DNA from: Beijerinckiaceae bacterium | GTDB lineage: Bacteria; Pseudomonadota; Alphaproteobacteria; Rhizobiales; Beijerinckiaceae | Assembly (NCBI GenBank): GCA_947380915.1 | Contig: CANCSY010000062.1 | Coordinates: forward strand, 1 to 14,028 | DNA length: 14,028 nucleotides | Direction: 5' to 3' | In this document: positions 1 to 14,001 of the stretch, piece after piece | Layout of the letters: each line of letters begins with the position of its first letter | Numbering within the stretch: position 1 is the first letter of the stretch | Program-made: the position numbers and the translations under genes | Notes under the pieces: generated by a model | Told to the model about the DNA's origin: nothing | The model's database searches: none | The model's input: only the letters and a program-made list of their open reading frames with translations

Positions 1-591
1 GTGCAGGCGACCTTCGCTGGCAAGGCTGTTCAGTACAAGATCACCCAGGAAGACATCACGAAGTCTTTGAGTGGCCAGGCCGCGGACGCTTTGTCAACGA
101 CTGTGGCGAATGCGCTGCAGGCCAAGCTGGACACGCCCCTGTGGAACGACTCCTATACCGCTTCTGTTGTTGGCAACAAGTTGCAGGTAATCCCGAAGGT
201 CGGTGTTTCCGGCGTGACGCCGCTTTCGGTCGGCGCCACCGGCAATGCGTCAGCCAAGTTCGTGGAAGGCGACCTCTCGGATATCGCGCCTTCAACGGTG
301 ACTTCGGCGAAAAACGCCTACGATGCGCTTCAGAATATCGACAGCGTTCTGCAGACCGTCAACGCCGCCCGCTCCAACATGGGCGCCATCATCAGCCGGC
401 TGCAGTTCGCTTCCGACAATCTGTTCAGCGTGATGACCAAGGCGACGGAATCCCGCAGCCGCATCGAAGATACCGATTATTCCTCGGCGACCACGGAACT
501 CGCCAAGCGCAACATCATCCAGCAGGCCTCGCAGGCGATGTTGGCCCAGGCCAACCAGGCTCCCCAGATGGTGCTCCAGTTGCTGAAGTAA
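1..591 (+). CDS. fliC: Flagellin, C-terminal part (5' end outside window)
   Basis: This is the 3' part of a flagellin gene whose product polymerises into the extracellular filament. The reading frame is open from base 1, and the GTG there is very probably an internal valine, because the first residues align inside the second flagellin (VQATFAGKAVQYKITQED against VIVEANLDGKKFQYQITQKD). About 196 residues are present: the end of the variable outer domain (about 1-95), then the conserved helical D1/D0 C-terminus with SRLQFASDNL, SRIEDTDYSSATTELAKRN and the terminal QAPQMVLQLLK. No cysteine is visible, as is usual for flagellar axial proteins. It is the upstream member of a tandem pair and ends in its own terminator, so it is probably transcribed separately. 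The family is certain. The symbol is generic, since alphaproteobacteria name several flagellin paralogues differently. Confidence 0.96.
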   Translation: MQATFAGKAVQYKITQEDITKSLSGQAADALSTTVANALQAKLDTPLWNDSYTASVVGNKLQVIPKVGVSGVTPLSVGATGNASAKFVEGDLSDIAPSTVTSAKNAYDALQNIDSVLQTVNAARSNMGAIISRLQFASDNLFSVMTKATESRSRIEDTDYSSATTELAKRNIIQQASQAMLAQANQAPQMVLQLLK

Positions 592-2344: not shown

Positions 2345-3775
2345 ATGGTCGCTATATCCCAGAATATCGTCAATAGTCTGACAGGCAGTACGCTGGACAT
2401 CCAGAAGCTCGCGACGGAGCTGACGGCAGCCGTGCGCGCGCCCCAGCAGGCGGCTTTGGACACCAAAAAGTCACTCGCCGACGCGCGTGTCTCCTCCATC
2501 GGCAAAATCACCAGCTCCGCCAACAATCTGAAGACGGCGATGGCGGGCTATGGTGATCCAAAGGCGATCGCCTACAAGCTTGTTCCCGATAAAAACGCAA
2601 GTTTCCAGTTCCATGTGGCTTCGCCCCCGAGAGCTGTCGATTTCACCTTTCAGGTGAACCATCCGGCCAGCGCCAATTCTCTCATGCTCGCCGGATTTCC
2701 AAACGATGGAACGCTGGCTGGCGCTGACGGCTCGGGCGTGCTGAATATTTACGGCGGCACAAGGCCTGCGGATCCCCTGGAAAGCAAAGCGCTTATTGCA
2801 TCTTTCAAACTTACGGACTATGCGACGCTGGATGAGCTGAAAACCGCCATCCAGAATCAGACAGGATTCAGCGCTTCCATCGTAAGTTCCGGCTCCGCCA
2901 TCGGCTCTCTTCAATATCTCACTATCTCCCATGGTCTAGGCACTGATAACAAGTTCTACGTCGAGACGATGAAGAGCGACGGCTCCGCTCTGGCGGATGG
3001 CTTGAAGCCCTCGAGCGATGCGGCCGCGCAAACCACCGGTCAGGACGCCGAGGTGAGTTATAACGGGATCACCTTTACATCCCCGACGAACAAGTTCGCA
3101 GATCTTGTGCCAGATCTCGAGATCACCATCAACGCCGATACGCCAGCCAATACGACTGTTCATCTGTCCACGACCAGCAATACGCAGACCTGCAAGGAAG
3201 CCTTGCAGGACATCGTGACCGCCTACAACAGTCTTTTGACCACGGTGAAAACCGAGGCCAAATATGACAAGGATGTAAAGCTGCGCGGTGGACTGGCCAA
3301 TGATGCGGTCGCCAGAGGGCTGCTGAATCAGATGCGGCTCTTGAGCACTGATCCCATCAAGCTGCCCGGTGGGAAAACGGTGACGCTTGCTGAAGTCGGC
3401 GTCAGGACCAATCTTGATGGATCTCTGGCGATCGACACCGTTTTGATGGACAAGGTGATCGCCAACAGTCCCGGCTTGCTCGAATCCGTGGTTGCCTCTG
3501 GCGATACGCCCGGCGCCATCGAGCGTTTCACCAAGCTGACTGATGTCGTTGTTGGACCGTCGTCCTCCTTCAAATCGATTTCCGACACGGTGACCAATAC
3601 GGAATTGCCCAAAATCGCGGACGCCATCACCAAACTGAATGATGAGATGGACGCGCTGCAGGCGAAATATCTCAAGCAATTCTCGGCGATGCAGACGATC
3701 GTGAACGCTTCGAAAAATGTGCAGGACAGCCTGACCCAGTCCATGTCCTCATGGACCGCGGGCCTTAAAAACTAA
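2345..3775 (+). CDS. fliD: Flagellar filament cap protein FliD (HAP2)
   Basis: FliD forms the cap at the tip of the growing filament and folds incoming flagellin into place. The 476-residue protein matches the family in length and order. A FliD N-terminal region (about 15-115) contains STLDIQKLATELTAAVRAPQ followed by the helical KKSLADARVSSIGKITSSAN. A variable beta-rich middle runs to about 235. The FliD C-terminal region (about 235-460) includes EVSYNGITFTSPTNKFADLV, DIVTAYNSL and VGVRTNLDGSLAIDT, then a long terminal helix likely to form a coiled coil (about 415-470). There is no signal peptide, as expected for a type III export substrate, and one cysteine (C283). The ATG has GGAGG five bases upstream. 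It leads an apparent operon with the two small genes downstream and probably depends on sigma-54. Confidence 0.95.
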   Translation: MVAISQNIVNSLTGSTLDIQKLATELTAAVRAPQQAALDTKKSLADARVSSIGKITSSANNLKTAMAGYGDPKAIAYKLVPDKNASFQFHVASPPRAVDFTFQVNHPASANSLMLAGFPNDGTLAGADGSGVLNIYGGTRPADPLESKALIASFKLTDYATLDELKTAIQNQTGFSASIVSSGSAIGSLQYLTISHGLGTDNKFYVETMKSDGSALADGLKPSSDAAAQTTGQDAEVSYNGITFTSPTNKFADLVPDLEITINADTPANTTVHLSTTSNTQTCKEALQDIVTAYNSLLTTVKTEAKYDKDVKLRGGLANDAVARGLLNQMRLLSTDPIKLPGGKTVTLAEVGVRTNLDGSLAIDTVLMDKVIANSPGLLESVVASGDTPGAIERFTKLTDVVVGPSSSFKSISDTVTNTELPKIADAITKLNDEMDALQAKYLKQFSAMQTIVNASKNVQDSLTQSMSSWTAGLKN

Positions 3776-4002: not shown

Positions 4003-4548
4003 GTGAAATCTCCCCGCAAAGCGGCCGCGAATTCCATCAACAAGCTGGAAGCGCTCGATCTTTCGATGTTATCGGAAGAAGAGCGTCTCTCGGCCGTCGC
4101 GGAAGTGCGGGCATTGATCGTGGAAGTATCCGCAGACAAGCGCCCCGACGCGCCGATTCTCGAACGCAAGCTCGCCTTGCTGCGGCTTTGGCAACGGCTC
4201 GTGCAAATGCGTATCGTCGATGTCCGGGCTGAAAAGCCGCCGCCAGATGTCAGACCTGACGTTGCGCGCATGTTCCCGCCGGATCCAGAGCCTGAGCCAG
4301 CGCCTGCGCCAGTTGAAGCCTCTGTGGAGGCGCCTGTTCCTGCGCCGACTCCCGCACCCAAGCGGAAGGCGTCTGCACAGGTGAGTGTGAAGCTTGTTGA
4401 AGAAGCCGTCATCAAAGGCAAAACCTTCGCCGCCGACGAAGTGGTGCAGGTATCGCGCAAGGAAGCTGACGGTCTCGTCGAAGCGGGCAAGGCGACTGTC
4501 GTCGATGATGCGGCGAAGCCCCAGACGGCGGAAGAATCAGCCGAATAA
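4003..4548 (+). CDS. Unknown protein with helical N-terminus, Pro/Ala linker and small C-terminal module (181 aa)
   Basis: I do not recognise this protein. It has three visible parts: an N-terminal helical segment (about 8-75) with heptad-like leucines and charged residues (NKLEALDLSMLSEEERL ... ERKLALLRLWQRLVQMRI); a proline/alanine/glutamate linker (about 79-120); and a compact module (about 127-168) of the form VSVKLVEEAVIKGKTFAADE, then VVQVSRKEADGLVEAGKATV. That last module resembles small beta-rich domains in which a gap between strands carries a KG..F..DEVV pattern. There is no signal peptide or membrane segment. The GTG start, 14 nt after the preceding stop, lacks a clear ribosome site, so translation may be coupled. 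As third gene of the fliD operon it could be an export chaperone or regulator. That is inference from position only. Confidence 0.75.
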   Translation: MKSPRKAAANSINKLEALDLSMLSEEERLSAVAEVRALIVEVSADKRPDAPILERKLALLRLWQRLVQMRIVDVRAEKPPPDVRPDVARMFPPDPEPEPAPAPVEASVEAPVPAPTPAPKRKASAQVSVKLVEEAVIKGKTFAADEVVQVSRKEADGLVEAGKATVVDDAAKPQTAEESAE

Positions 4549-4658: not shown

Positions 4659-5627
4659 CTAGCGTGGATCGGCGGCTTTCAAAATAAGACGCGCACCGGA
4701 CGCCAGGGGCGATACGCTCCCTTCGCCCATCGGTTCATGAGCGCCGGAATTGGCGGCGCCTTTGGATGCGTCGCGCATATGAGCATCGCTCACCTGGGCC
4801 ATTCCGCTGGCGTGATCCACAAGCGAGAAGTTCTTGAGATATTGCATCATCGCAGCTTCGGTGACCGGAGGGGCCGCCGATGTGTCTGGCGCCTCTGGCG
4901 AAGACTGCGGGCGGCTTGACGCAATTGCGGTCGCCACCGCCTGCTTGAGACGCGCTTCGAAGGCGCCCAGATTTTCAACCGCAGCCGCAGCCGTTTCCTT
5001 GAGCGTTGGCGCCGTGGTGGCGATGGTTGCCGAAGCGTCAGCGAACTTCTGCGCGAAGCGGTTGTAGATGTCCTGGTAGGACAGGGGCGTTCTGTTGGCG
5101 TAGAAGACCGATTTGTTTGCAGCGGCAGCCAATGGAAGCGCATTTGCTGCGGGTTCCGATGGTTTGTCACGCAATCCATTGAGGAAGGTGTTGGCGCCTG
5201 ACGCCCCCAGGAAATGCGCCATATATAGCTCGGTCGGGCCAATCGATTTGTGACCCGCAGCAGCGAGCGACTGCGCATTATCCGCCGCCAGATGCGCAGC
5301 CAGGGAGGTCGCCACATAGGGCTCGTTTCGGAGGTTGAGAATCTGTGCGCGCTCATCTCCTGAAAGCATATTCGCACGCAGGCTTTGGGCCTCGGACGCC
5401 AGGCCCACCTTGTCGCCATGACGCTTGACCATGTTCATCCACGTTCCCGAGGTGAATTGAAACAGGCCTGACGCGGAACTCGTGGGAGCCCTGGCGCGCG
5501 GGTCAAGTCCGCTTTCCACCTTCGCCTGGTTCAACAGGTACTGGAAATCTGCGTTCTGCGTATTCGCAACCCTGCGAATTGTGGAGATAATGTTATCGCG
5601 AGTGTCGGGGACTGGCTGAATGGGCAT
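4659..5627 (-). CDS. Lytic transglycosylase (SLT domain), probably flagellum-dedicated
   Basis: Cleaves peptidoglycan glycan strands, probably to open the wall for the growing rod. Numbering from the chosen ATG (322 aa), the SLT domain covers about 25-150. AKVESGLDPRA carries the likely catalytic Glu38, SSASGLFQFTSGTW is the next family motif, and YMAHFLGASGA corresponds to the third. After a helical region comes a Ser/Pro/Ala-rich linker (about 236-258) and an unassigned tail. I chose ATG 5627 because an upstream in-frame TTG (5663) lies inside the -12 box of a good sigma-54 promoter and GTG 5657 is also before the predicted transcript start. The chosen ATG has only a poor ribosome site (GGA 11 nt away). 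I see no Sec signal peptide. The neighbouring flgJ lacks a muramidase domain, so this enzyme could supply that activity, as SltF does with FlgJ in Rhodobacter sphaeroides. Confidence 0.88.
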   Translation of the reverse strand: MPIQPVPDTRDNIISTIRRVANTQNADFQYLLNQAKVESGLDPRARAPTSSASGLFQFTSGTWMNMVKRHGDKVGLASEAQSLRANMLSGDERAQILNLRNEPYVATSLAAHLAADNAQSLAAAGHKSIGPTELYMAHFLGASGANTFLNGLRDKPSEPAANALPLAAAANKSVFYANRTPLSYQDIYNRFAQKFADASATIATTAPTLKETAAAAVENLGAFEARLKQAVATAIASSRPQSSPEAPDTSAAPPVTEAAMMQYLKNFSLVDHASGMAQVSDAHMRDASKGAANSGAHEPMGEGSVSPLASGARLILKAADPR

Positions 5628-5658
5628 TTCTGGTATCCATTGATTGCCTTGGTTCACT

Positions 5659-5675
5659 AGCAAATTCCAAGCCAG
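5659..5675 (-). promoter_or_regulatory. Candidate sigma-54 promoter of the lytic transglycosylase
   Basis: On the minus strand CTGGCTTGGAATTTGCT fits YTGGCACG-N4-TTGCW, with GG and GC exactly 10 nt apart. Transcription would start near 5648, about 21 nt before ATG 5627. The element matches the fliD promoter at most fixed positions (TGGC, G, TTGCT). Placing the start codon at TTG 5663 would put it within this promoter. Confidence 0.6.
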
Positions 5676-5743: not shown

Positions 5744-6190
5744 ATGGACATCTTCGTTACTGTAATGATGGTTGCGATGGTGCTGCTCGTGGTGGTGGTT
5801 GGCGCCGCCGTGTTCTTGCAGCAAAGCGCCACTTTGCGTGACATCCAGAACAAGCTTGATCTTGCGCAGGAGCACGCCCGCCAAAGAAAGGATCCAGAAG
5901 TCTTGCGCAAGGAGCGGCTGGCCTTGCTGGATCCGCTCATGCTGCTTGAATCACAGATTTACAGCAGGAAGCCGCAAGTCTTGAGCGACGAGGAAATCGA
6001 GCTGATATCCTCGACGCGCACGCGCATGATAAAGCTTTGTGATGATCTGAAAGCCGCCGACGCATGGTTGGGTGCGCCCTATGATCTCGAATGGTTCGAA
6101 TATCTTGAGCGCATCCCCGTCTTGAAGACGCTTTATCTGAATTCGGGATTTTCTGAAGAACAACCCCCGCAAATCACTTCAGGTAGTTGA
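5744..6190 (+). CDS. Single-pass membrane protein of unknown function (148 aa)
   Basis: I do not recognise this family. The N-terminus has one strong hydrophobic segment (about 3-26, VTVMMVAMVLLVVVVGAAVF). A charged, helical, probably coiled-coil stretch follows (about 28-62, LRDIQNKLDLAQEHARQRKD), then a further helical region and a short polar tail. With no cleavage motif after the hydrophobic segment, a membrane anchor is more likely than a signal peptide. The start ATG has only a weak GGA upstream. The gene is divergent from the transglycosylase and convergent with flgL, overlapping its last 17 bases. Its length and TM-plus-helix layout recall small accessory proteins of envelope machines, and the setting suggests a flagellar role, but neither shows a function. 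It is the least certain gene-function call here, though the frame itself looks real. Confidence 0.7.
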   Translation: MDIFVTVMMVAMVLLVVVVGAAVFLQQSATLRDIQNKLDLAQEHARQRKDPEVLRKERLALLDPLMLLESQIYSRKPQVLSDEEIELISSTRTRMIKLCDDLKAADAWLGAPYDLEWFEYLERIPVLKTLYLNSGFSEEQPPQITSGS

Positions 6191-7079
6191 ACAAGGAGAG
6201 CTCAGCGATCTTGACGAAGGAAGCCTGCGCAGCGTCGAGTGTTGTGAGCTTTTGTTTCAGCTCGCTGATCGCCTTCTCCATGTCAGTATCCTCAAGGAGG
6301 GATATCTGAGCTGTTGTAGAGGTTTTGGAGCTGTCCAGCTTCTCCTGGGCGGAATCAAGGATAGCTGTTCGTGAGCCCACAAGCGCCAGTTGACCGGTTA
6401 AATGGTCAAGCGCGGCATTGATTTCATCTTTCCCTGTCGCAGGTGTTTCGCCATTCGCCAGTGCGTCCCCCATGGACTTCACGATGTCGAAAACCGATTT
6501 CGACGGGCCGGACCCCATCGGCACCCGGTCGAACACCTCATGCCCGGAAAAGCCGACAGTCACTTTTTCGTGGTCGCCAACCGCTTGTTCGACTTCATAG
6601 GCGTCACCCTTGTAGAAGACAGGCCCATCCTCAGTCGCTTGTTGAAAGGGGAGGCCGGATTGAAAGCCGCCAAAAATTGGCAAGCCATTGGCGTCAAGAG
6701 TATTGGCCAACCCCATCAGGCTCTTGGAAAGGCCCTTTACTTCATTCGCCATCAGCTTGCGATCAGACGCATTCAGTGTGTCATTGGAGCCCTGAATGGA
6801 AAGCTCGTGCAATCGTGTGAGAATGTTCGTCGCTTGCGAAAGCGAGGACTCCTCCAACGACAACCTTTGACGGGCCACGTCTATGTTGCGCCCATATTGC
6901 TTCAGACGAGAGTCGCGGGCCTTCAGCATCGCGAGATCGGAGAATGCGACAGGATCGTCGGAAGCGATATTCACCTGTTTGCCAGTTGCAATGGTTTCCT
7001 GCAACTTGACGGTTTGGGTCTTCAGATCCTGAATATTCTCAGTTTGGCTGCGAAAATAGGCGTTCGTGCTGATTTGCAT
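6174..7079 (-). CDS. flgL: Flagellar hook-filament junction protein FlgL (HAP3)
   Basis: FlgL forms the second junction ring between hook and filament, adjacent to the first flagellin subunits. At 301 residues it is close to the enteric length. The flagellin-like N-terminal helix region includes MQISTNAYFRSQTENIQDLK and IATGKQVNIASDDPVAFSDL. The next region has LTRLHELSIQGSNDT and ANTLDANGLPIFGGFQSG, a family hallmark. The C-terminal helices carry ISLLEDTDMEKAISELKQKL and end AELSLFNYLK, parallel to the flagellin C-terminus. There are no cysteines and no signal peptide. It starts 8 nt after flgK, with GAGG overlapping the flgK stop, so it is the last gene of the flgIJKL operon. No terminator is visible after it, and its end overlaps the opposing 148-aa gene by 17 bases. 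Confidence 0.95.
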   Translation of the reverse strand: MQISTNAYFRSQTENIQDLKTQTVKLQETIATGKQVNIASDDPVAFSDLAMLKARDSRLKQYGRNIDVARQRLSLEESSLSQATNILTRLHELSIQGSNDTLNASDRKLMANEVKGLSKSLMGLANTLDANGLPIFGGFQSGLPFQQATEDGPVFYKGDAYEVEQAVGDHEKVTVGFSGHEVFDRVPMGSGPSKSVFDIVKSMGDALANGETPATGKDEINAALDHLTGQLALVGSRTAILDSAQEKLDSSKTSTTAQISLLEDTDMEKAISELKQKLTTLDAAQASFVKIAELSLFNYLK

Positions 7080-7087
7080 GGCGAACC

Positions 7088-10000
7088 TCAGAAGGACTTG
7101 AGAATGGTTGAGAACATCTCACGCGCGGCCATGATGACCTGCGCTGCTGCTTGATAGGCTTGCTGGTAACGAATGAGGTCGGAGGCTTCTCTATCGAGAT
7201 TGACGCCCGTTTTGCCCTCATATGCGGCCTTCAGATCAGACGCCGCCTGCGATGTTGCGCTGGCTCGCATATTTGACGCCTGAACCGCCGAACCAAGCCG
7301 AGAGGTGACGCCGGCATAGACATCCTGAAAGGAGCCCTGGCCTTTGCCGAAAATCGAGGTTGTTGCAAGTTCCGCGATCCGGAGCGCATTGCGGTTATCT
7401 GACGTGCGCGTGCTGTCATTTCTTATGGTGTACAGGTCGCCTGCATTGGCGTTACCGTGGATCGTAAAGCTCATGCCAAGGTAATTGACCGGGATATCCT
7501 GCTGCCAGCTACGTTTGGCGAGGCTAGCACCAGACTCTGGATCAATAATCTCAAGTTGGCCGCCAGAGAGGATCTTGATTTGCAGGTCGGGTCTGAGGGG
7601 AGCCGGTGGAACGGCGGCCATATCGATCTTCGCGGCCACGCGCCTCAGTCCGTCAGCACTTAGATTTCTGACATCGACAACGAGATCCTCGGGGAGCCCC
7701 CCATCAAACTGAATGGCTTGACCAACATGGGAGACTGTCGCCCTGGAATCGGCAAGGTCCGTAATACGATCAGTCGCCGTTGATGTGAGGCTGAGCCTCG
7801 CGGACTCGACTTTCTTGTCGCTACCATCGCCCATGAAGCCAAGCGCCTGCGCATTACGGGCGCCGGTTTGACTCACCTTCACCTTGAAGCTTGCATCGGT
7901 GCTGCTGAGCATCAACCTGTCGGCAACCGCATCATAGGACCAGGACACGCCATTCGCCGGATCAGTCCCGGAGAGCTTGTTGATCGTGACCGGAGCATCG
8001 CCATTGTCACCAGTTGAAATTGTAAATTGCAGGCCCGAACCGGACTCGACCATCCCGGAGGCGACGCTTTTGACGGCTATGATTTGCGTTCCTGCCGCTT
8101 CCTGACCCGTGAAGCCAAGCGCTTTCGCCATTGCAAGGGTGTCTGTCGTGGCTGTATCGAGTTTGAGGGTTGCGTCAGTGCTGGTCAGCGTCAGTTTGCC
8201 ATCATACAGAGACCAGGTCACCCCATTATAGGTTCCGTTCGGTCTATCGATCGTAAGCACCTGTGCGCCAATCTTATCGCCCTTGACGTGAAGGCTTGGC
8301 TGTTTAACCGCCAGGAGCGAAGGGATAAGCTTGTTCGCACTGGTGATCGTGCTCTCGATGCTCAGATCCAGGTCTGATCCATTGAAGCCAAGCATCTTTG
8401 CGGTGTCTCGTTGCGCCTGCGTGGTTCCCTTGATCAGGAGCGCACTTTCTCCTGTTACGAAAGCAAGCCTGCCATTTTGAACCTTCCATGAGACGCCGCT
8501 GTGGGCGTCAAAGCCTGAAGATGAATCTATCTTGAAGCTGTAGAGGCTCTGGTTGTCGACGCTGCCGACCAGGACGGAAATCTCGGGCTGGGTGACGTTA
8601 AGAAGCGCGTCCGCAACAGCGCTGCCTGCAATCAGGGGGCTATTGATTTGCGTGGGCTGGAACCCAAGCTTTTCAGCCTCCAAATCGTTGCTGGCGCTGC
8701 GGTTGAACCTCACTGAAAGATCATCACTTGACAGCACAAGTTTCCCGTCGACGGTGGCCCAGGACACGCGACCCTGAGAGCCTGACGGCGCATCTATCTT
8801 GACCGCCAAATCGCCGATACTGTTTCCAGTCAGATGGAGCGTTGGCTTGAGAGAAGACAACAGAGACGTCGTCAGGTCCGTCGGGCTTGTGACGCTTGTC
8901 GCGAAGGGCTTGCCGTCGGCCAGTCCCATCGTGCTGAGGCCAATGGCGCCAACCTGCGAGCCGATGATTGTGCTATCGGGCGTTTGTTGATCAGAAAAAC
9001 CGAGGGCGTTCGCAAGGGTTTTCTTTTGCAGTGTGGATGTATCAATCCCGATGTAACTGCCATCATCGCTTTGAAGCGACAGTCGACCGCCGTCGACCTT
9101 CCAGCTGATTCCATTGCTTTTGCCCTGTGTGGCGTCAATCGTGAGGCGGAAGCCACTGGAGCCACGCGTGACATAAATGGAGGGTTTAGTTTCAGCCAGC
9201 ATTGACGCCGAGAGGAGGCTCGCGGGCGCCACCGAGATTTGCGGAGCGGTGGTTCGTAATTTTTGAGGAATAGTGATCAACACCCGTGAGGCGCCGGCCC
9301 ATGAGTTCTGCATGGGGGGGCTGAGTGGAGGTGCAGGATCTATGGCGGTGGGTGCTGAAAGGTTTTCCCTTCCATTCGGAGTAATCTGGAAGGCTGACAA
9401 CCGAGCAACCTCGTCGGACCCCATGAGGGGTCTGTCGAAAGTTACTGATCCGGCCGTCGCTTCAGCAGCAGTCAAGGTCTTCGTCGCCAGAACCTGGGAC
9501 CCATCCGAACTCATGAGTTCAACGGTCTGGCCTGGCAGGCTCCCGGCTTTTAAGGCAACCTCAAGTCTTGTGACATTATACTTGTCTTCAGGCCCACCTG
9601 TGACCAGGCTGACTTGCAAATCCGTGGCGCCACCCAGATCGAAAGTGCCGGTCTCGCGGAGCAAGCTACTGATACGCGTTGCAGTGTATGGGGGGCCTTG
9701 CTCCGAACCGTCAAAGCCAAGCGCCGTGTAATCAAGAGACGGGTCTATTGCGATTGATATATCCGAGCGACTGCTGACCTGTAGTTTTCCATCCACATAG
9801 GCCCAGTCGACGCCCTTGCTGGTGCCCGCGGATTTATCAATCGTGATTTCCTGTTCGCCGATGAGGTTGCCAGTGACCTTTAGTTTCAGGTTTCTTGGTT
9901 CCTGAGAGCGCTGGAAGGTGATTGTCTGCGGCGGTTGGCGGCCATCGATCGAAACTTCGAAAGCGATCTTCGAAGGCATATTGTCTGTAAAGTTTATGGG

Positions 10001-12340
10001 AGCGCCAAGCCAGGAAACGCGCGGCGCCTGTGCGTTCATCCTGGCGGCAATGGCCGCTGTTATCTCGGCCGGCCCGGCACCTGCGAGGCTGTCGCCCGCC
10101 AGACGGATAGGGTCGAGGCCATCGACATTCAGGGCATAGACGGCGCCCGTCAAGGGCGCCTGCCCATAGCCAGCCTGTGGCATATCGAACGACGATTGGG
10201 TTGACACATCGATCTTGGCGCTGGTGTTCAGCGTTGATGCATTGGTGTCATAATTCGTCGTGGCGAGGAGCTTGGAGGCCTCGGTGGAGGTTATGCGAGG
10301 ATATCCGATCGCAAGATAATTTTTGTTGTATTCGGCATCCGAGAGGAAGCCATTCGCCGGGGTTACGAACGCGTCGCCTTCGGAGGCCGGATCGAACGGG
10401 GGGCCGGATATTTGGCGACCATCGCGTGTGAAAACGCGCATAACCGCAGCGCTGCTCCCGGGTTCATTTGCGCCCTTGATCTGGTTGGGGTCGCCATTGG
10501 CGTCGAAACCAGAGCCGATGAGAGCGCCAGTCGTTACCTGTTTTCCGTTCAGCGCGGTTATGGTGAGGGTGCCATTTGAAACGCTGGCGTAAAGCGCATC
10601 CTTGAGATCGGTGTCGCCATTCGCCGCAGCCTTCTGGGCGGCGGCATTAATGGCGTCGGCGACATCGTTCAGGCCTGATCCTTTTAAGAACAGTGGAAGA
10701 TCTTTTTTTGTGCCGTTGACTGCGTTAGTGGCGCCGGTCACAAAAATGGAAAGCGACAACTTCGAGACGCCATAGCCGTCAGCACTGGTGAGAGCGCTGA
10801 TTTGCGTGCCGGTCGCGTTAAAGTGCACCGCAGATATATCGCCAAGCGAGGTGAGCGTCGCTGAGGAGGCGCCAGCGGGTAGAATGAAGGCGGAGCCATT
10901 TTTCAGGAAATCATTAACGGGGTTCTCGCTGTCAAAGACTGATGTAGCGGGAGGAACCTGTGTCGCCGCATCAGGCTCGGTGCGCTTGAGCGGACGCAAG
11001 TCAGCGTTTCCCGAATTTGCCGGCGATGGATCCACATACAAAGGCAAGGCAACCGCAACTTCGGCAGGGGTCTTCACAAGAAACCGCATTGAAGATGCCG
11101 CGCCCAGAAGCGGAGATACCGTGAAAGTGTCCCCATCCTTCGCCTGCCCATCGAATTTGAAGGAAACGCCTCCCATCGACAAGTTGTTCTGATCGGTAAC
11201 AGTTTTACCTTCGCTTGATTTGATCGTCCAGGCATTCTGGCTTTGGTTGAAGCGGGCCGTATAAGTGACATTGTTGATGGAGGCTGCGTTATCGATGGTC
11301 AATATAAGCTTCGCGTCGCCCAGATTGTTCTTGGCGGCCACAGCGTTGAGACCATCCGTGGAGAACAGGTCGCCGCCCTGATTCCCGTTAAGATCTACGC
11401 CCTGCTTGTGTTGCTCGTTGACGGCGACAGAAAAACCGACTGCGAGGCGGTTGATGTCGTCTCGCAGCAATTTTATCTGGGCGCGAAAATCCATCAATCC
11501 CGCAACCGTGCCGCTTGTGAGCTGATTGGTGGGCGCGGGCGCCGAATTGGGGTCCATGGTGATTTCGAGCTTATCGCCACTCTCGATGATCCCGAGGGGA
11601 TGAGATCCGTCGGCATAGACCAGAGGACGGCCGCTTGCGGTCTCGCCCAGATAGACCATCACTGCGCCCGACGGCTTCTCGCTATATGAAAAGTTCGCCA
11701 GATTGGAGAGGCTGGTCAGCAGCTTGTCGCGTTGATCGAGAAGGTCATTAGGCTTTTGCCCGCTTGTTGCGGCGCTCTGGATTTGGACGTTTAGCAGGCC
11801 AAGCTGGGTGGTGATGCCATTGACGGCGGTGAGACCGGCGTCGAGGCCCGAACGAATGGCGCCAAGGCTATCTTCGATAGCCGATGCAGCCGACGTGAAT
11901 ACGTTGGCAACCTGCTTGCCGGAGTCCAGAACTGAAATGCGCGCAGCGGCGGAAGTCGGCGCATTGGCGACATCGTTGAACCGACTATAAAAGTCCTGAA
12001 CGATCGAACCGGGATTGCTGGTTGTGGCGAAAAGGGTCTTCTCGATTTGGGTGAGAGAATCCGCCAGGGTCTGGGATTGCAGATTCAGCGAATTTGCTTT
12101 GAGCGCCTGCACCTGCAGGAAAGCGTCGTTTGCACGACGAACCATATCCACCATGACGCCTGAGCCGCTGGTGTTCGAGGCCGCAGTTGGCAGCATCGCG
12201 CTATCGCCGGCTCCGCTGAGCACGACGTCGCGACGCACATAGCCTTCGGTATTGGCGTTGGTGATATTGCCGCCCACTGTCTCCAGAAGCTTGCGATAGG
12301 CTGTGAGGCCGGACGCGCCAATGCCCAGAATATCGACCAT
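7088..12340 (-). CDS. flgK: Giant flagellar hook-filament junction protein FlgK (HAP1), 1750 aa
   Basis: FlgK forms the first junction ring on the hook. The N-terminus is canonical (MVDILGIGASGLTAYRKLLE, GNITNANTEGYVRRDV) and continues to about 410 with NDLLDQRDKLLTSLSNLANF and GGVSFKFDGQAKDGDTFTV. The C-terminus (about 1585-1750) is also canonical: VNYLGMSFTIHGNANAGDLY, DNRNALRIAEL and ASDLIRYQQAYQAAAQVI. Enteric FlgK has about 550 residues, so roughly 1,175 are extra. The insert has an early unit (about 470-690, with VMRVFTRDGRQISGPPFDP), segments resembling flagellar IN-type motifs (about 555-603 and 745-785), and six copies of a Trp/LGF module. No cysteine is visible. The frame is unbroken for 5.25 kb and keeps flagellum-like Ser/Thr/Asn/Ala/Gly composition, so this is not a fusion by sequencing error. 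It starts 4 nt after flgJ, with GGAG nine bases upstream. Confidence 0.95.
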   Translation of the reverse strand: MVDILGIGASGLTAYRKLLETVGGNITNANTEGYVRRDVVLSGAGDSAMLPTAASNTSGSGVMVDMVRRANDAFLQVQALKANSLNLQSQTLADSLTQIEKTLFATTSNPGSIVQDFYSRFNDVANAPTSAAARISVLDSGKQVANVFTSAASAIEDSLGAIRSGLDAGLTAVNGITTQLGLLNVQIQSAATSGQKPNDLLDQRDKLLTSLSNLANFSYSEKPSGAVMVYLGETASGRPLVYADGSHPLGIIESGDKLEITMDPNSAPAPTNQLTSGTVAGLMDFRAQIKLLRDDINRLAVGFSVAVNEQHKQGVDLNGNQGGDLFSTDGLNAVAAKNNLGDAKLILTIDNAASINNVTYTARFNQSQNAWTIKSSEGKTVTDQNNLSMGGVSFKFDGQAKDGDTFTVSPLLGAASSMRFLVKTPAEVAVALPLYVDPSPANSGNADLRPLKRTEPDAATQVPPATSVFDSENPVNDFLKNGSAFILPAGASSATLTSLGDISAVHFNATGTQISALTSADGYGVSKLSLSIFVTGATNAVNGTKKDLPLFLKGSGLNDVADAINAAAQKAAANGDTDLKDALYASVSNGTLTITALNGKQVTTGALIGSGFDANGDPNQIKGANEPGSSAAVMRVFTRDGRQISGPPFDPASEGDAFVTPANGFLSDAEYNKNYLAIGYPRITSTEASKLLATTNYDTNASTLNTSAKIDVSTQSSFDMPQAGYGQAPLTGAVYALNVDGLDPIRLAGDSLAGAGPAEITAAIAARMNAQAPRVSWLGAPINFTDNMPSKIAFEVSIDGRQPPQTITFQRSQEPRNLKLKVTGNLIGEQEITIDKSAGTSKGVDWAYVDGKLQVSSRSDISIAIDPSLDYTALGFDGSEQGPPYTATRISSLLRETGTFDLGGATDLQVSLVTGGPEDKYNVTRLEVALKAGSLPGQTVELMSSDGSQVLATKTLTAAEATAGSVTFDRPLMGSDEVARLSAFQITPNGRENLSAPTAIDPAPPLSPPMQNSWAGASRVLITIPQKLRTTAPQISVAPASLLSASMLAETKPSIYVTRGSSGFRLTIDATQGKSNGISWKVDGGRLSLQSDDGSYIGIDTSTLQKKTLANALGFSDQQTPDSTIIGSQVGAIGLSTMGLADGKPFATSVTSPTDLTTSLLSSLKPTLHLTGNSIGDLAVKIDAPSGSQGRVSWATVDGKLVLSSDDLSVRFNRSASNDLEAEKLGFQPTQINSPLIAGSAVADALLNVTQPEISVLVGSVDNQSLYSFKIDSSSGFDAHSGVSWKVQNGRLAFVTGESALLIKGTTQAQRDTAKMLGFNGSDLDLSIESTITSANKLIPSLLAVKQPSLHVKGDKIGAQVLTIDRPNGTYNGVTWSLYDGKLTLTSTDATLKLDTATTDTLAMAKALGFTGQEAAGTQIIAVKSVASGMVESGSGLQFTISTGDNGDAPVTINKLSGTDPANGVSWSYDAVADRLMLSSTDASFKVKVSQTGARNAQALGFMGDGSDKKVESARLSLTSTATDRITDLADSRATVSHVGQAIQFDGGLPEDLVVDVRNLSADGLRRVAAKIDMAAVPPAPLRPDLQIKILSGGQLEIIDPESGASLAKRSWQQDIPVNYLGMSFTIHGNANAGDLYTIRNDSTRTSDNRNALRIAELATTSIFGKGQGSFQDVYAGVTSRLGSAVQASNMRASATSQAASDLKAAYEGKTGVNLDREASDLIRYQQAYQAAAQVIMAAREMFSTILKSF
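7826..8038 (-). repeat. FlgK insert module R6 (residues 1435-1505)
   Basis: SGLQFTISTGDNGDAPVTIN, then NGVSWSYDAVADRLMLSSTD, ending QALGFMGDG. Marker tryptophan W1467, LGF at 1500-1502. A three-residue insertion replaces the usual DGKL turn. After it comes an IN-like segment and then the normal FlgK C-terminus. Confidence 0.77.
8099..8299 (-). repeat. FlgK insert module R5 (residues 1348-1414)
   Basis: PSLHVKGDKIGAQVLTID, then NGVTWSLYDGKLTLTSTDAT, ending KALGFTGQE. Marker tryptophan W1376, LGF at 1408-1410. It is the clearest example of the consensus. Confidence 0.8.
8372..8587 (-). repeat. FlgK insert module R4 (residues 1252-1323)
   Basis: PEISVLVGSVDNQSLYSFKI, then SGVSWKVQNGRLAFVTGESA, ending KMLGFNGSD. 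Marker tryptophan W1285, LGF at 1317-1319. It is longer than the others before the tryptophan. Confidence 0.78.
8654..8845 (-). repeat. FlgK insert module R3 (residues 1166-1229)
   Basis: PTLHLTGNSIGDLAVKID, then GRVSWATVDGKLVLSSDDLS, ending EKLGFQPTQ. Marker tryptophan W1194, LGF at 1225-1227. This is the first of four copies with exactly 91 residues from tryptophan to tryptophan. Confidence 0.8.
8987..9184 (-). repeat. FlgK insert module R2 (residues 1053-1118)
   Basis: PSIYVTRGSSGFRLTID, then NGISWKVDGGRLSLQSDDGS, ending ANALGFSDQQ. Marker tryptophan W1080, LGF at 1113-1115. It lies 114 residues (Trp to Trp) before R3. Confidence 0.78.
9701..9892 (-). repeat. FlgK insert module R1 (residues 817-880)
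   Basis: First copy of the recurring module: LKVTGNLIGEQEITID, then KGVDWAYVDGKLQVSS, ending ALGFDGSE. The marker tryptophan is W846, and LGF is at 874-876, 28 residues later. It is separated from R2 by about 170 unrelated residues and is the outlying copy. Confidence 0.75.
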
Positions 12341-12344
12341 TTAC

Positions 12345-12833
12345 TCAGTCTCCGCTAATGAATTTCGGCGCCGTTCTAGACGCAGCGAGGCCTGCTGGCA
12401 TGTTGGATGCGGCGGTGGATCGGATACCAAGGCTCTGTCCAGCTGCGACACTGGCGGAAAGACCACCCGCGAGAGCATCTGACTGGCTGCTCGTGAGTTT
12501 AACCGGGTTCAAAGGCATCAGCCCTGTCGCCTTTGATCCTGTTTTTGGAGCAAATTGACGGTTGATAGCCTCCGCAAGACCAAGTTTCGTCGTCTTGACG
12601 GAGAGCTCGGAATAGGCGCCGTCCAGCATGGACTGAAAGGGCTTTGAATGTTCGCTATCCAGAAGGCCACCCTCGATCTGTGCATCACGCATGGATTTCA
12701 GGATCGTCTGCATGAACATGGTTTCAAAGGCCTTGCCCACCTGGTCTAAAGTGGATTTGTGGCCGTATTGACGACTTTGATCCAGCGAGAGAGAGTTCAG
12801 GGGGCCTGTCGAGCGGGGAGGGAGAGCGTCCAT
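12345..12833 (-). CDS. flgJ: FlgJ, rod-capping (rod-binding) domain only
   Basis: FlgJ caps the growing rod in the periplasm. This 162-residue protein carries the rod-binding domain at about 30-95: GKAFETMFMQTILKSMRDAQ, then GGLLDSEHSKPFQSMLDGAY and KLGLAEAINRQF. The remaining 65 residues are a low-complexity Ser/Ala/Gly tail. The glucosaminidase domain of enteric FlgJ (about 313 aa) is absent. That is common in alphaproteobacteria, where a separate lytic transglycosylase does the cutting, and one is encoded at 4659-5627. There is no signal peptide, as expected for a type III exported protein. It starts 7 nt after flgI, with AGGA overlapping the flgI stop, and ends 4 nt before flgK. I assign it on the rod-binding motif and its operon position. 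Confidence 0.9.
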   Translation of the reverse strand: MDALPPRSTGPLNSLSLDQSRQYGHKSTLDQVGKAFETMFMQTILKSMRDAQIEGGLLDSEHSKPFQSMLDGAYSELSVKTTKLGLAEAINRQFAPKTGSKATGLMPLNPVKLTSSQSDALAGGLSASVAAGQSLGIRSTAASNMPAGLAASRTAPKFISGD

Positions 12834-12840
12834 GGTTTCC

Positions 12841-14001
12841 TCAGATCACAATGAGGTCGGCATGCAGGGCGCCTGCCTGCTTGAGAGCTTCCAGAATCGC
12901 GACGAGATCACTGGGGGATGCGCCCACAGCATTTACTGCGTCAACGATGCTGGCGAGTTGCACGTCTGGAGCAAAGAGGAAGGTGCGCACGGGGGCCAGA
13001 TCGGCGACAATCTGGCTGTCGCGGGTAACCGCAGTCTGGCCGGCCGCGTTTGTGTTGCCGATGCCACCACCTCCAGCATTGGGTTGCGAGACGTTGAGGT
13101 TTTCCTTGATGCGCACGGTCAGGCTGCCATGTGACACCGCAGCCGGCGTCACGCGCACACCTTCGCTGATGACAATGGTGCCTGTGCGCGAATTGACGAT
13201 GACGCGGGCAGGGGGCGCCGATGGGGTCACCATAAGGTCTTCAATCGCCGCCATGAAGGAAACGCGGCGGTCGAGATCCTTTGGCGCGATAACCTTCACA
13301 GTTGTGGCGTCAAGGGCTATCGCAGTGCCTGCACCGAAATTGCCATTGACAGCCGCAGCCAAGCGCATGGCGTTCGTGAAATCGGGCGAGTTCAGATTCA
13401 GCATAAGGGATTGCGCTGTTTCAAACGGACTCGCAACCATACGCTCAACGGTGGCGCCATCGGGAATGCGACCAACGGTCGGAATGTTGACGGTCAGCGT
13501 CGAACCATCCTTGCCCGTAATGCCGAGACCGCCGACAGCCAGATTTCCCTGCGCGACCGCATAGGTTTCGTTGTCGGCGCCGACCAACTGGGTAATGAGC
13601 AGGCTACCGCCTCGCAGGCTTGAGGCCTTGCCCATGGAGGACACTGTTATATCGATTTTCTGACCAGGCTTGGCGAAGGCCGGCAACTCTGCCGTCACCA
13701 TCACAGCCGCGACATTCTTGGCGTCAATGTTACTTGTCTGGGGTATGGACATGCCGAAACGTTGCAGCAAGCTCTGAACGGTTTGTTTCGTCGCCTCGAC
13801 GTTGCCGTCGCCCGTGCCATTGAGGCCCACGACGATTCCATATCCGACCAGTTGGTTGGAGCGCACGCCGCCAATGGAGACCATGTCCTTCACGCGGTCG
13901 CGGGCAGGAGGCGGGGCTTGCGCAAATCCCTTGTCAGAAAGGTTTGGCAGAAGGATCGACGCAAGTATTGTGGCGACGGCAAACTTGTTTGTGTTGGTCA
14001 T
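12841..14001 (-). CDS. flgI: Flagellar P-ring protein FlgI
   Basis: FlgI forms the P-ring, the bushing in the peptidoglycan layer through which the rod passes. The 386-residue protein has a Sec signal peptide (hydrophobic stretch about 8-20, likely cleavage after the AQA ending at residue 29). The family core follows: RVKDMVSIGGVRSNQLVGYG then IVVGLNGTGD (about 36-65), AAVMVTAELPAFAKPGQKID, SSLRGGSLLITQLVGADNET and YAVAQGNLAVGG. The C-terminal part has VNSRTGTIVISEGVRVTPAA, VSHGSLTVRI and the final LVAILEALKQAGALHADLIV. Enteric FlgI is about 365 aa, so the length is normal. The ATG has AGGA about seven bases upstream. It is the first operon gene visible; only 27 bases remain upstream, so whether flgA precedes it cannot be seen. 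Confidence 0.97.
   Translation of the reverse strand: MTNTNKFAVATILASILLPNLSDKGFAQAPPPARDRVKDMVSIGGVRSNQLVGYGIVVGLNGTGDGNVEATKQTVQSLLQRFGMSIPQTSNIDAKNVAAVMVTAELPAFAKPGQKIDITVSSMGKASSLRGGSLLITQLVGADNETYAVAQGNLAVGGLGITGKDGSTLTVNIPTVGRIPDGATVERMVASPFETAQSLMLNLNSPDFTNAMRLAAAVNGNFGAGTAIALDATTVKVIAPKDLDRRVSFMAAIEDLMVTPSAPPARVIVNSRTGTIVISEGVRVTPAAVSHGSLTVRIKENLNVSQPNAGGGGIGNTNAAGQTAVTRDSQIVADLAPVRTFLFAPDVQLASIVDAVNAVGASPSDLVAILEALKQAGALHADLIVI

What the first reader, a model, noticed from the sequence alone, without database searches (positions are those of the whole stretch)
7088..12340. FlgK three times the usual size
The gene keeps complete, canonical FlgK ends (about residues 1-410 and 1585-1750), but between them lies an insert of about 1,175 residues. 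FlgK assembles as an 11-mer ring at the hook-filament junction, and its central domains point outward. If every subunit carries this insert, the junction would bear a large protein collar. Plausible roles are adhesion, mechanical reinforcement or shielding, or an attachment point for surface structures. None is shown by sequence.
Basis: partly seen in the sequence, partly recalled or inferred. Interest (0 to 1): 0.8.

Follow-up and report, generated by a model that had tools for sequence, protein, structure and literature searches.

The report
Giant FlgK with stacked repeat modules
A bacterium related to Beijerinckiaceae encodes a flagellar joint protein about three times the usual size, whose extra part is a chain of small repeated folds that varies in number among relatives and goes together with an equally oversized hook protein, so the joint probably carries a large outer collar whose purpose is untested.

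Summary
ORF 7088-12340 (-) encodes a 1750-aa FlgK with canonical ends, between flgJ and flgL. It is not an assembly error: four homologues of 1737-1752 aa are 73-74% identical over the whole length. The middle is modular: a confidently predicted beta-rich stack (pLDDT 85, pTM 0.80), six copies of an about 87-aa module without a significant Pfam or PDB sequence match, and one Ig-like module. Over 76 homologues FlgK length is about 1157 + 87 per copy (r 0.93; 1-7 copies); by parsimony on a core tree copy number rose at least three times. In the 7 of 7 relative genomes with an uncut giant FlgK and flgE on a held contig, FlgE is giant too (frames 1330-1699 aa); it was 416-860 aa in the 44 of 49 genomes with ordinary FlgK whose FlgE was listed. 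FlgE and FlgK inserts are not detectably homologous. The Ig module also occurs in another hook-type protein. Best reading: an outer collar on the FlgK ring continuing an enlarged hook surface, probably mechanical reinforcement; adhesion or shielding remain open. New variant of a known kind.

The parts
7088..12340 (-). giant flgK, 1750 aa, no cysteine, calculated 182 kDa
11336..12340 (-). N-terminal D0/D1 core, residues 1-335 (FlgK_D1 at 96-326)
   Evidence: the border 335 is my reading
7091..7435 (-). C-terminal D1/D0 core, residues 1636-1750 (Flg_bbr_C at 1711-1747)
   Evidence: the border 1636 is my reading
10451..10843 (-). beta domain, residues about 500-630, of a fold seen in FliD D2/D3 and in phage tail proteins
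9686..9898 (-). module copy 1, residues 815-885
   Evidence: repeat HMM built from these six copies
9329..9589 (-). Ig-like module, residues about 918-1004; among the FlgKs compared only in P0001-P0006, and also in a second hook-type protein
8966..9193 (-). module copy 2, residues 1050-1125
8630..8854 (-). module copy 3, residues 1163-1237
8357..8599 (-). module copy 4, residues 1248-1328
8081..8308 (-). module copy 5, residues 1345-1420
7808..8038 (-). module copy 6, residues 1435-1511
6174..7079 (-). flgL, 301 aa, ordinary size, 8 bases after flgK
   Evidence: TIGR02550 231.9 bits, cut-off 127.2
12345..12833 (-). flgJ rod-binding domain protein, 162 aa, 4 bases before flgK
12841..14001 (-). 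flgI by position and sequence (not scanned with a library; annotation recalled)

Best explanation
A true FlgK of a flagellum whose hook protein (FlgE) and first junction protein (FlgK) have both gained large outer domains. Each FlgK keeps the D0/D1 core that packs into the 11-subunit ring. Its outer part is a stack of beta domains with an array of about 87-aa modules (six here) and one Ig-like module. Eleven copies would form a collar of roughly 1.5 MDa (11 x 135 kDa, canonical D2 included) around the distal end of the hook, continuing the surface made by the giant FlgE. The likeliest job is mechanical: extra contacts between neighbouring subunits and with FlgE stiffen and strengthen the hook and its joint, as functional experiments suggest for domains D3/D4 of Campylobacter FlgE. 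Module copy number would set the reach. Shown here: gene, homologues, modular growth, co-occurrence of giant FlgE in relatives, purifying selection, predicted fold. Inferred: ring, collar, contacts, mechanical role, and that the window's own FlgE is giant.
Against: No experiment and no multimer model. The window's own flgE lies outside the window. Within the seven genomes read directly FlgE length and FlgK length do not correlate significantly (rho 0.43, p 0.34), nor FlgE length and copy number (rho 0.23, p 0.62), which speaks against tight matching. The co-occurrence probably rests on one origin, so it is not seven independent events. FlgE and FlgK inserts are not detectably homologous. Ig-like and beta modules are also what adhesins use.
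Confidence: 0.5

Rival explanations
1. Adhesive collar: the modules and the Ig-like domain are binding domains that hold the cell to particles, algae or polysaccharide at the base of the filament.
Confidence: 0.2
2. Shield: the bulky hook and collar protect the joint from phages, enzymes or grazers, and changing modules reflect escape.
For: The insert evolves faster than the N core (84% against 91% identity, G036 and G046); repeated copy-number change.
Against: Low dN/dS, no sign of diversifying selection at this resolution. No data on phages or grazers.
Confidence: 0.13
3. Drift ratchet: outer domains of axial proteins tolerate insertions because export needs only unfolded chains, and modules pile up by duplication with little benefit.
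For: Copy number varies widely among relatives (1-7); P0012 with 3 copies falls beside P0009 with 6, though at support 0.11 only.
Against: dN/dS 0.08-0.13 and intact frames. Whether lineages revert to ordinary size was not tested: the homologue search leaves out proteins under 0.55 of the length.
Confidence: 0.15
4. Assembly or prediction artefact.
For: None found.
Against: Homologues of the same length and 73-74% identity; continuous frame.
Confidence: 0.01

Closest known systems
FlgK (HAP1) of Salmonella and Burkholderia pseudomallei (PDB 2d4y, 9go6, 4ut1)
   Different: 553-673 aa against 1750; the array module has no significant match among PDB sequences
Campylobacter jejuni hook protein FlgE (865 aa) with extra domains D3/D4, and its diverged FlgK (PMC5069557, PMC5097172, PMC5691160; abstracts and passages)
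   Same: outer domains added to an axial protein, FlgK changed along with FlgE
   Different: there the FlgK chain has 608 aa; here FlgE frames of relatives are 1330-1699 aa and FlgK 1183-1814 aa (P0001-P0079 without the partial P0067); homology of the extra domains was not tested
FliD (cap) D2/D3 and flagellin D2 domains
Second FlgEFG-type protein of the same genomes (362-499 aa)
   Same: carries 1-3 copies of the Ig-like module
   Different: has FlgE/F/G ends, not FlgK's; function unknown

Membership tests
FlgK (flagellar hook-associated protein 1) | flgK_ends equivalog model over cut-off | tested here: met
   260.2 bits, cut-off 170.75
FlgK (flagellar hook-associated protein 1) | FlgK_D1 helical domain and Flg_bbr_C end over cut-off | tested here: met
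   PF22638 177.7 bits, PF06429 34.7 bits
FlgK (flagellar hook-associated protein 1) | N-terminal Flg_bb_rod over cut-off | tested here: inconclusive
   19.9 bits against 20.7
FlgK (flagellar hook-associated protein 1) | place between flgJ and flgL | tested here: met
FlgK (flagellar hook-associated protein 1) | core fold of solved FlgK | tested here: inconclusive
FlgK (flagellar hook-associated protein 1) | 11-subunit ring at the hook-filament junction | not testable with these tools
   needs microscopy or a multimer model
Reinforced hook of the Campylobacter kind | enlarged FlgE in the same flagellum | tested here: inconclusive
   seen in relatives, 7 of 7; the window's own flgE is outside the window
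Reinforced hook of the Campylobacter kind | extra domains homologous to FlgE D3/D4 | not tested
   -
Adhesin | known adhesion or carbohydrate-binding domain | tested here: inconclusive

The most novel reading that the evidence does not exclude
A lineage of bacteria builds an armoured hook: both FlgE and FlgK, but not FlgG or FlgL, are enlarged with unrelated outer domains, and the FlgK collar grows or shrinks by whole beta modules, with an Ig-like module traded between axial proteins. The flagellar joint would then have an evolvable, length-tunable outer collar of more than a megadalton.
Probability: 0.45. Interest if true: 0.75.

Novelty: new variant of a known kind. Interest (0 to 1): 0.62.

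Why it matters
Hook and junction are often treated as nearly fixed machine parts; a 2016 paper aa one of the longest hook proteins (PMC5069557, passage). In this lineage FlgE reaches 1695 aa and FlgK 1814 aa, with module counts from 1 to 7 across natural relatives. That is a ready natural series for testing how outer domains set hook stiffness, joint strength and export limits, and whether axial proteins exchange domains.

Full report
What is there. The window's minus strand carries flgI, flgJ, flgK and flgL close together; flgK (7088-12340) starts 4 bases after flgJ and ends 8 bases before flgL. The product has 1750 residues and no cysteine. It passes the flgK_ends, FlgK_D1 and Flg_bbr_C cut-offs and falls just short for Flg_bb_rod. 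G+C in the insert, 0.54-0.61, is that of its surroundings. No own genome is held.

It is real and inherited. A search of 5.8 billion proteins gave 96 homologues (only proteins of 0.55-1.75 times its length are candidates). Four have 1737-1752 aa with 73-74% identity over the whole length, and a fifth has 1814 aa. Relatives in named genomes are Beijerinckiaceae and Hyphomicrobiales assemblies, L001-L006; that these come from fresh water is recalled from the isolate names, not shown. Among the other 74 loci kept in that call no FlgK frame exceeded 822 aa except L071, a frame of 1061 aa.

The middle is modular. Six window segments share a module of about 87 residues with the pattern GVSW, DGKL, a run of strands and a helix ending in ALGF (strands and helix). 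An HMM of these six finds 1-7 copies in 76 of the 95 homologues kept (P0067, a partial, was dropped; copies counted at domain E under 0.05). FlgK length is 1157 + 87 per copy, r 0.93. The control was clean: 0 of 207 shuffled sequences and 0 of 103 FlgKs under 1000 aa matched. On a tree of the cores (206 sequences, FastTree, midpoint root) six or seven copies appear separately in the window's clade and in that of P0023, P0027 and P0033, and L002 with five copies sits among two-copy relatives. This is read by parsimony; losses were not modelled. The tree of single modules was drawn without support values and is not relied on.

A shared module. Between copies 1 and 2 lies an Ig-like module, residues about 918-1004. 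Of the 207 FlgKs compared only P0001-P0006 have it, two copies in P0006. A relative of it was found in a second hook-type protein of G001 (43% identity, E 1.2e-10). Single-sequence search hits this protein at E 3e-5 or better in 3 of 6 genome regions read (G001, G002, G036) and at 0.014-0.076 in the other three (G003, G011, G046). An iterated HMM, which took in such proteins as it grew, finds 1-3 copies in 6 of 6. The protein (362-499 aa) passes the FlgEFG subfamily cut-off in the two copies scanned; motA and motB beside it were confirmed by Pfam in G036 only. So axial proteins seem to have exchanged a domain; direction unknown.

The hook is giant too. In gene clusters of relatives FlgE has 1368 (L113), 1695 (L115), 1372 (L117), 1378 (L120), 1591 (L123), 1387 (L124) and 1397 aa (L127), and G003 has a second FlgE of 1491 aa (L119) (three of the seven and the second one of G003 were checked with Pfam or NCBIfam besides L123). 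FlgL has 300-302 aa in nine loci and FlgG 261 aa in ten, as I read the ORFs. In a survey of 101 genomes around G001, 60 have a FlgK over cut-off: 49 of ordinary size (frames 483-754 aa), 9 giant (1283-1709) and 2 cut at contig ends (G004, G006). FlgE frames were 1330-1699 aa in all 7 giant-FlgK genomes with flgE on a held contig (G001, G002, G003, G023, G032, G036, G056); in G011 and G046 the contig ends before flgE. They were 416-860 aa in 44 of the 49; in the other 5 none was listed or only a fragment (a capped list). Frames are stop to stop. The giant genomes probably share one origin, so this is one event rather than seven. The two closest relatives on long contigs seem to pair FlgK of 1737 and 1743 aa with FlgE of 1370 and 1418 aa, judged by equal contig length. 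Over 16 such pairs lengths correlate (rho 0.64, p 0.008, no kinship correction, and both searches admit only long proteins); over seven genomes read directly they do not (rho 0.43, p 0.34). FlgE and FlgK inserts show no homology.

Origin. On the core tree the long FlgKs (95 taxa, 1183-2319 aa, support 0.81) lie next to mostly beta- and gammaproteobacterial FlgKs and apart from 32 ordinary FlgKs of relatives (443-745 aa; support 1.0). A second group of long FlgKs (P0088-P0096, 985-1306 aa) lies with L057 of a Comamonadaceae assembly. So long FlgKs arose more than once, and this flagellum may differ in descent from the ordinary one of its order. Rooting and sampling make this weak evidence.

Function. 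In Salmonella 11 FlgK subunits form a layer about 190 angstroms wide above the hook (PMC12221982, passages). Extra FlgE domains in Campylobacter bring stability to the hook, and its FlgK is thought to have diverged to fit (PMC5097172, PMC5691160, abstract and passages). By analogy the enlarged FlgE and FlgK would form one reinforced outer layer ending at FlgL. Residues 336-1635 weigh 135 kDa, so 11 copies amount to about 1.5 MDa. Purifying selection on the insert (dN/dS 0.08-0.09 in one pair at dS about 1 or above, 0.125 in a second, more saturated pair) says that it matters, not how.

Verdict. Observation confirmed; the collar is a good inference; the function is open, reinforcement first. 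New variant of a known kind.

Noticed in passing
L129:10592-11854, L130:8624-9910, L131:7760-9259, L132:7778-8866, L133:3771-5039, L134:7601-8914: A second hook-type (FlgEFG subfamily) protein of 362-499 aa with 1-3 Ig-like modules, beside motA/motB in G036; possible extra axial component of unknown function.
   Followed up: partly
L119:2940-7415 (G003): A second giant FlgE paralogue (1491 aa) on another contig than the main flagellar cluster.
   Followed up: partly
P0081, P0082: FlgK homologues of 2316 and 2319 aa without a repeat-module match, 29% identical to the window over 39%; even larger FlgKs exist.
   Followed up: no
window 1-591 and 942-2216: Two flagellin-like genes in a row (the first cut by the window edge, read by eye; the second confirmed by Pfam), then fliD at 2345-3775; none of these is enlarged.
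   Followed up: partly
window 5744-6190 and 4003-4548: Two small ORFs between flgL and fliD, with similar ORFs in several relatives' clusters; not identified.
   Followed up: no
window 4659-5663: Lytic transglycosylase (SLT) gene near flgL, while FlgJ shows only the rod-binding domain; it may supply the missing peptidoglycan hydrolase.
   Followed up: no
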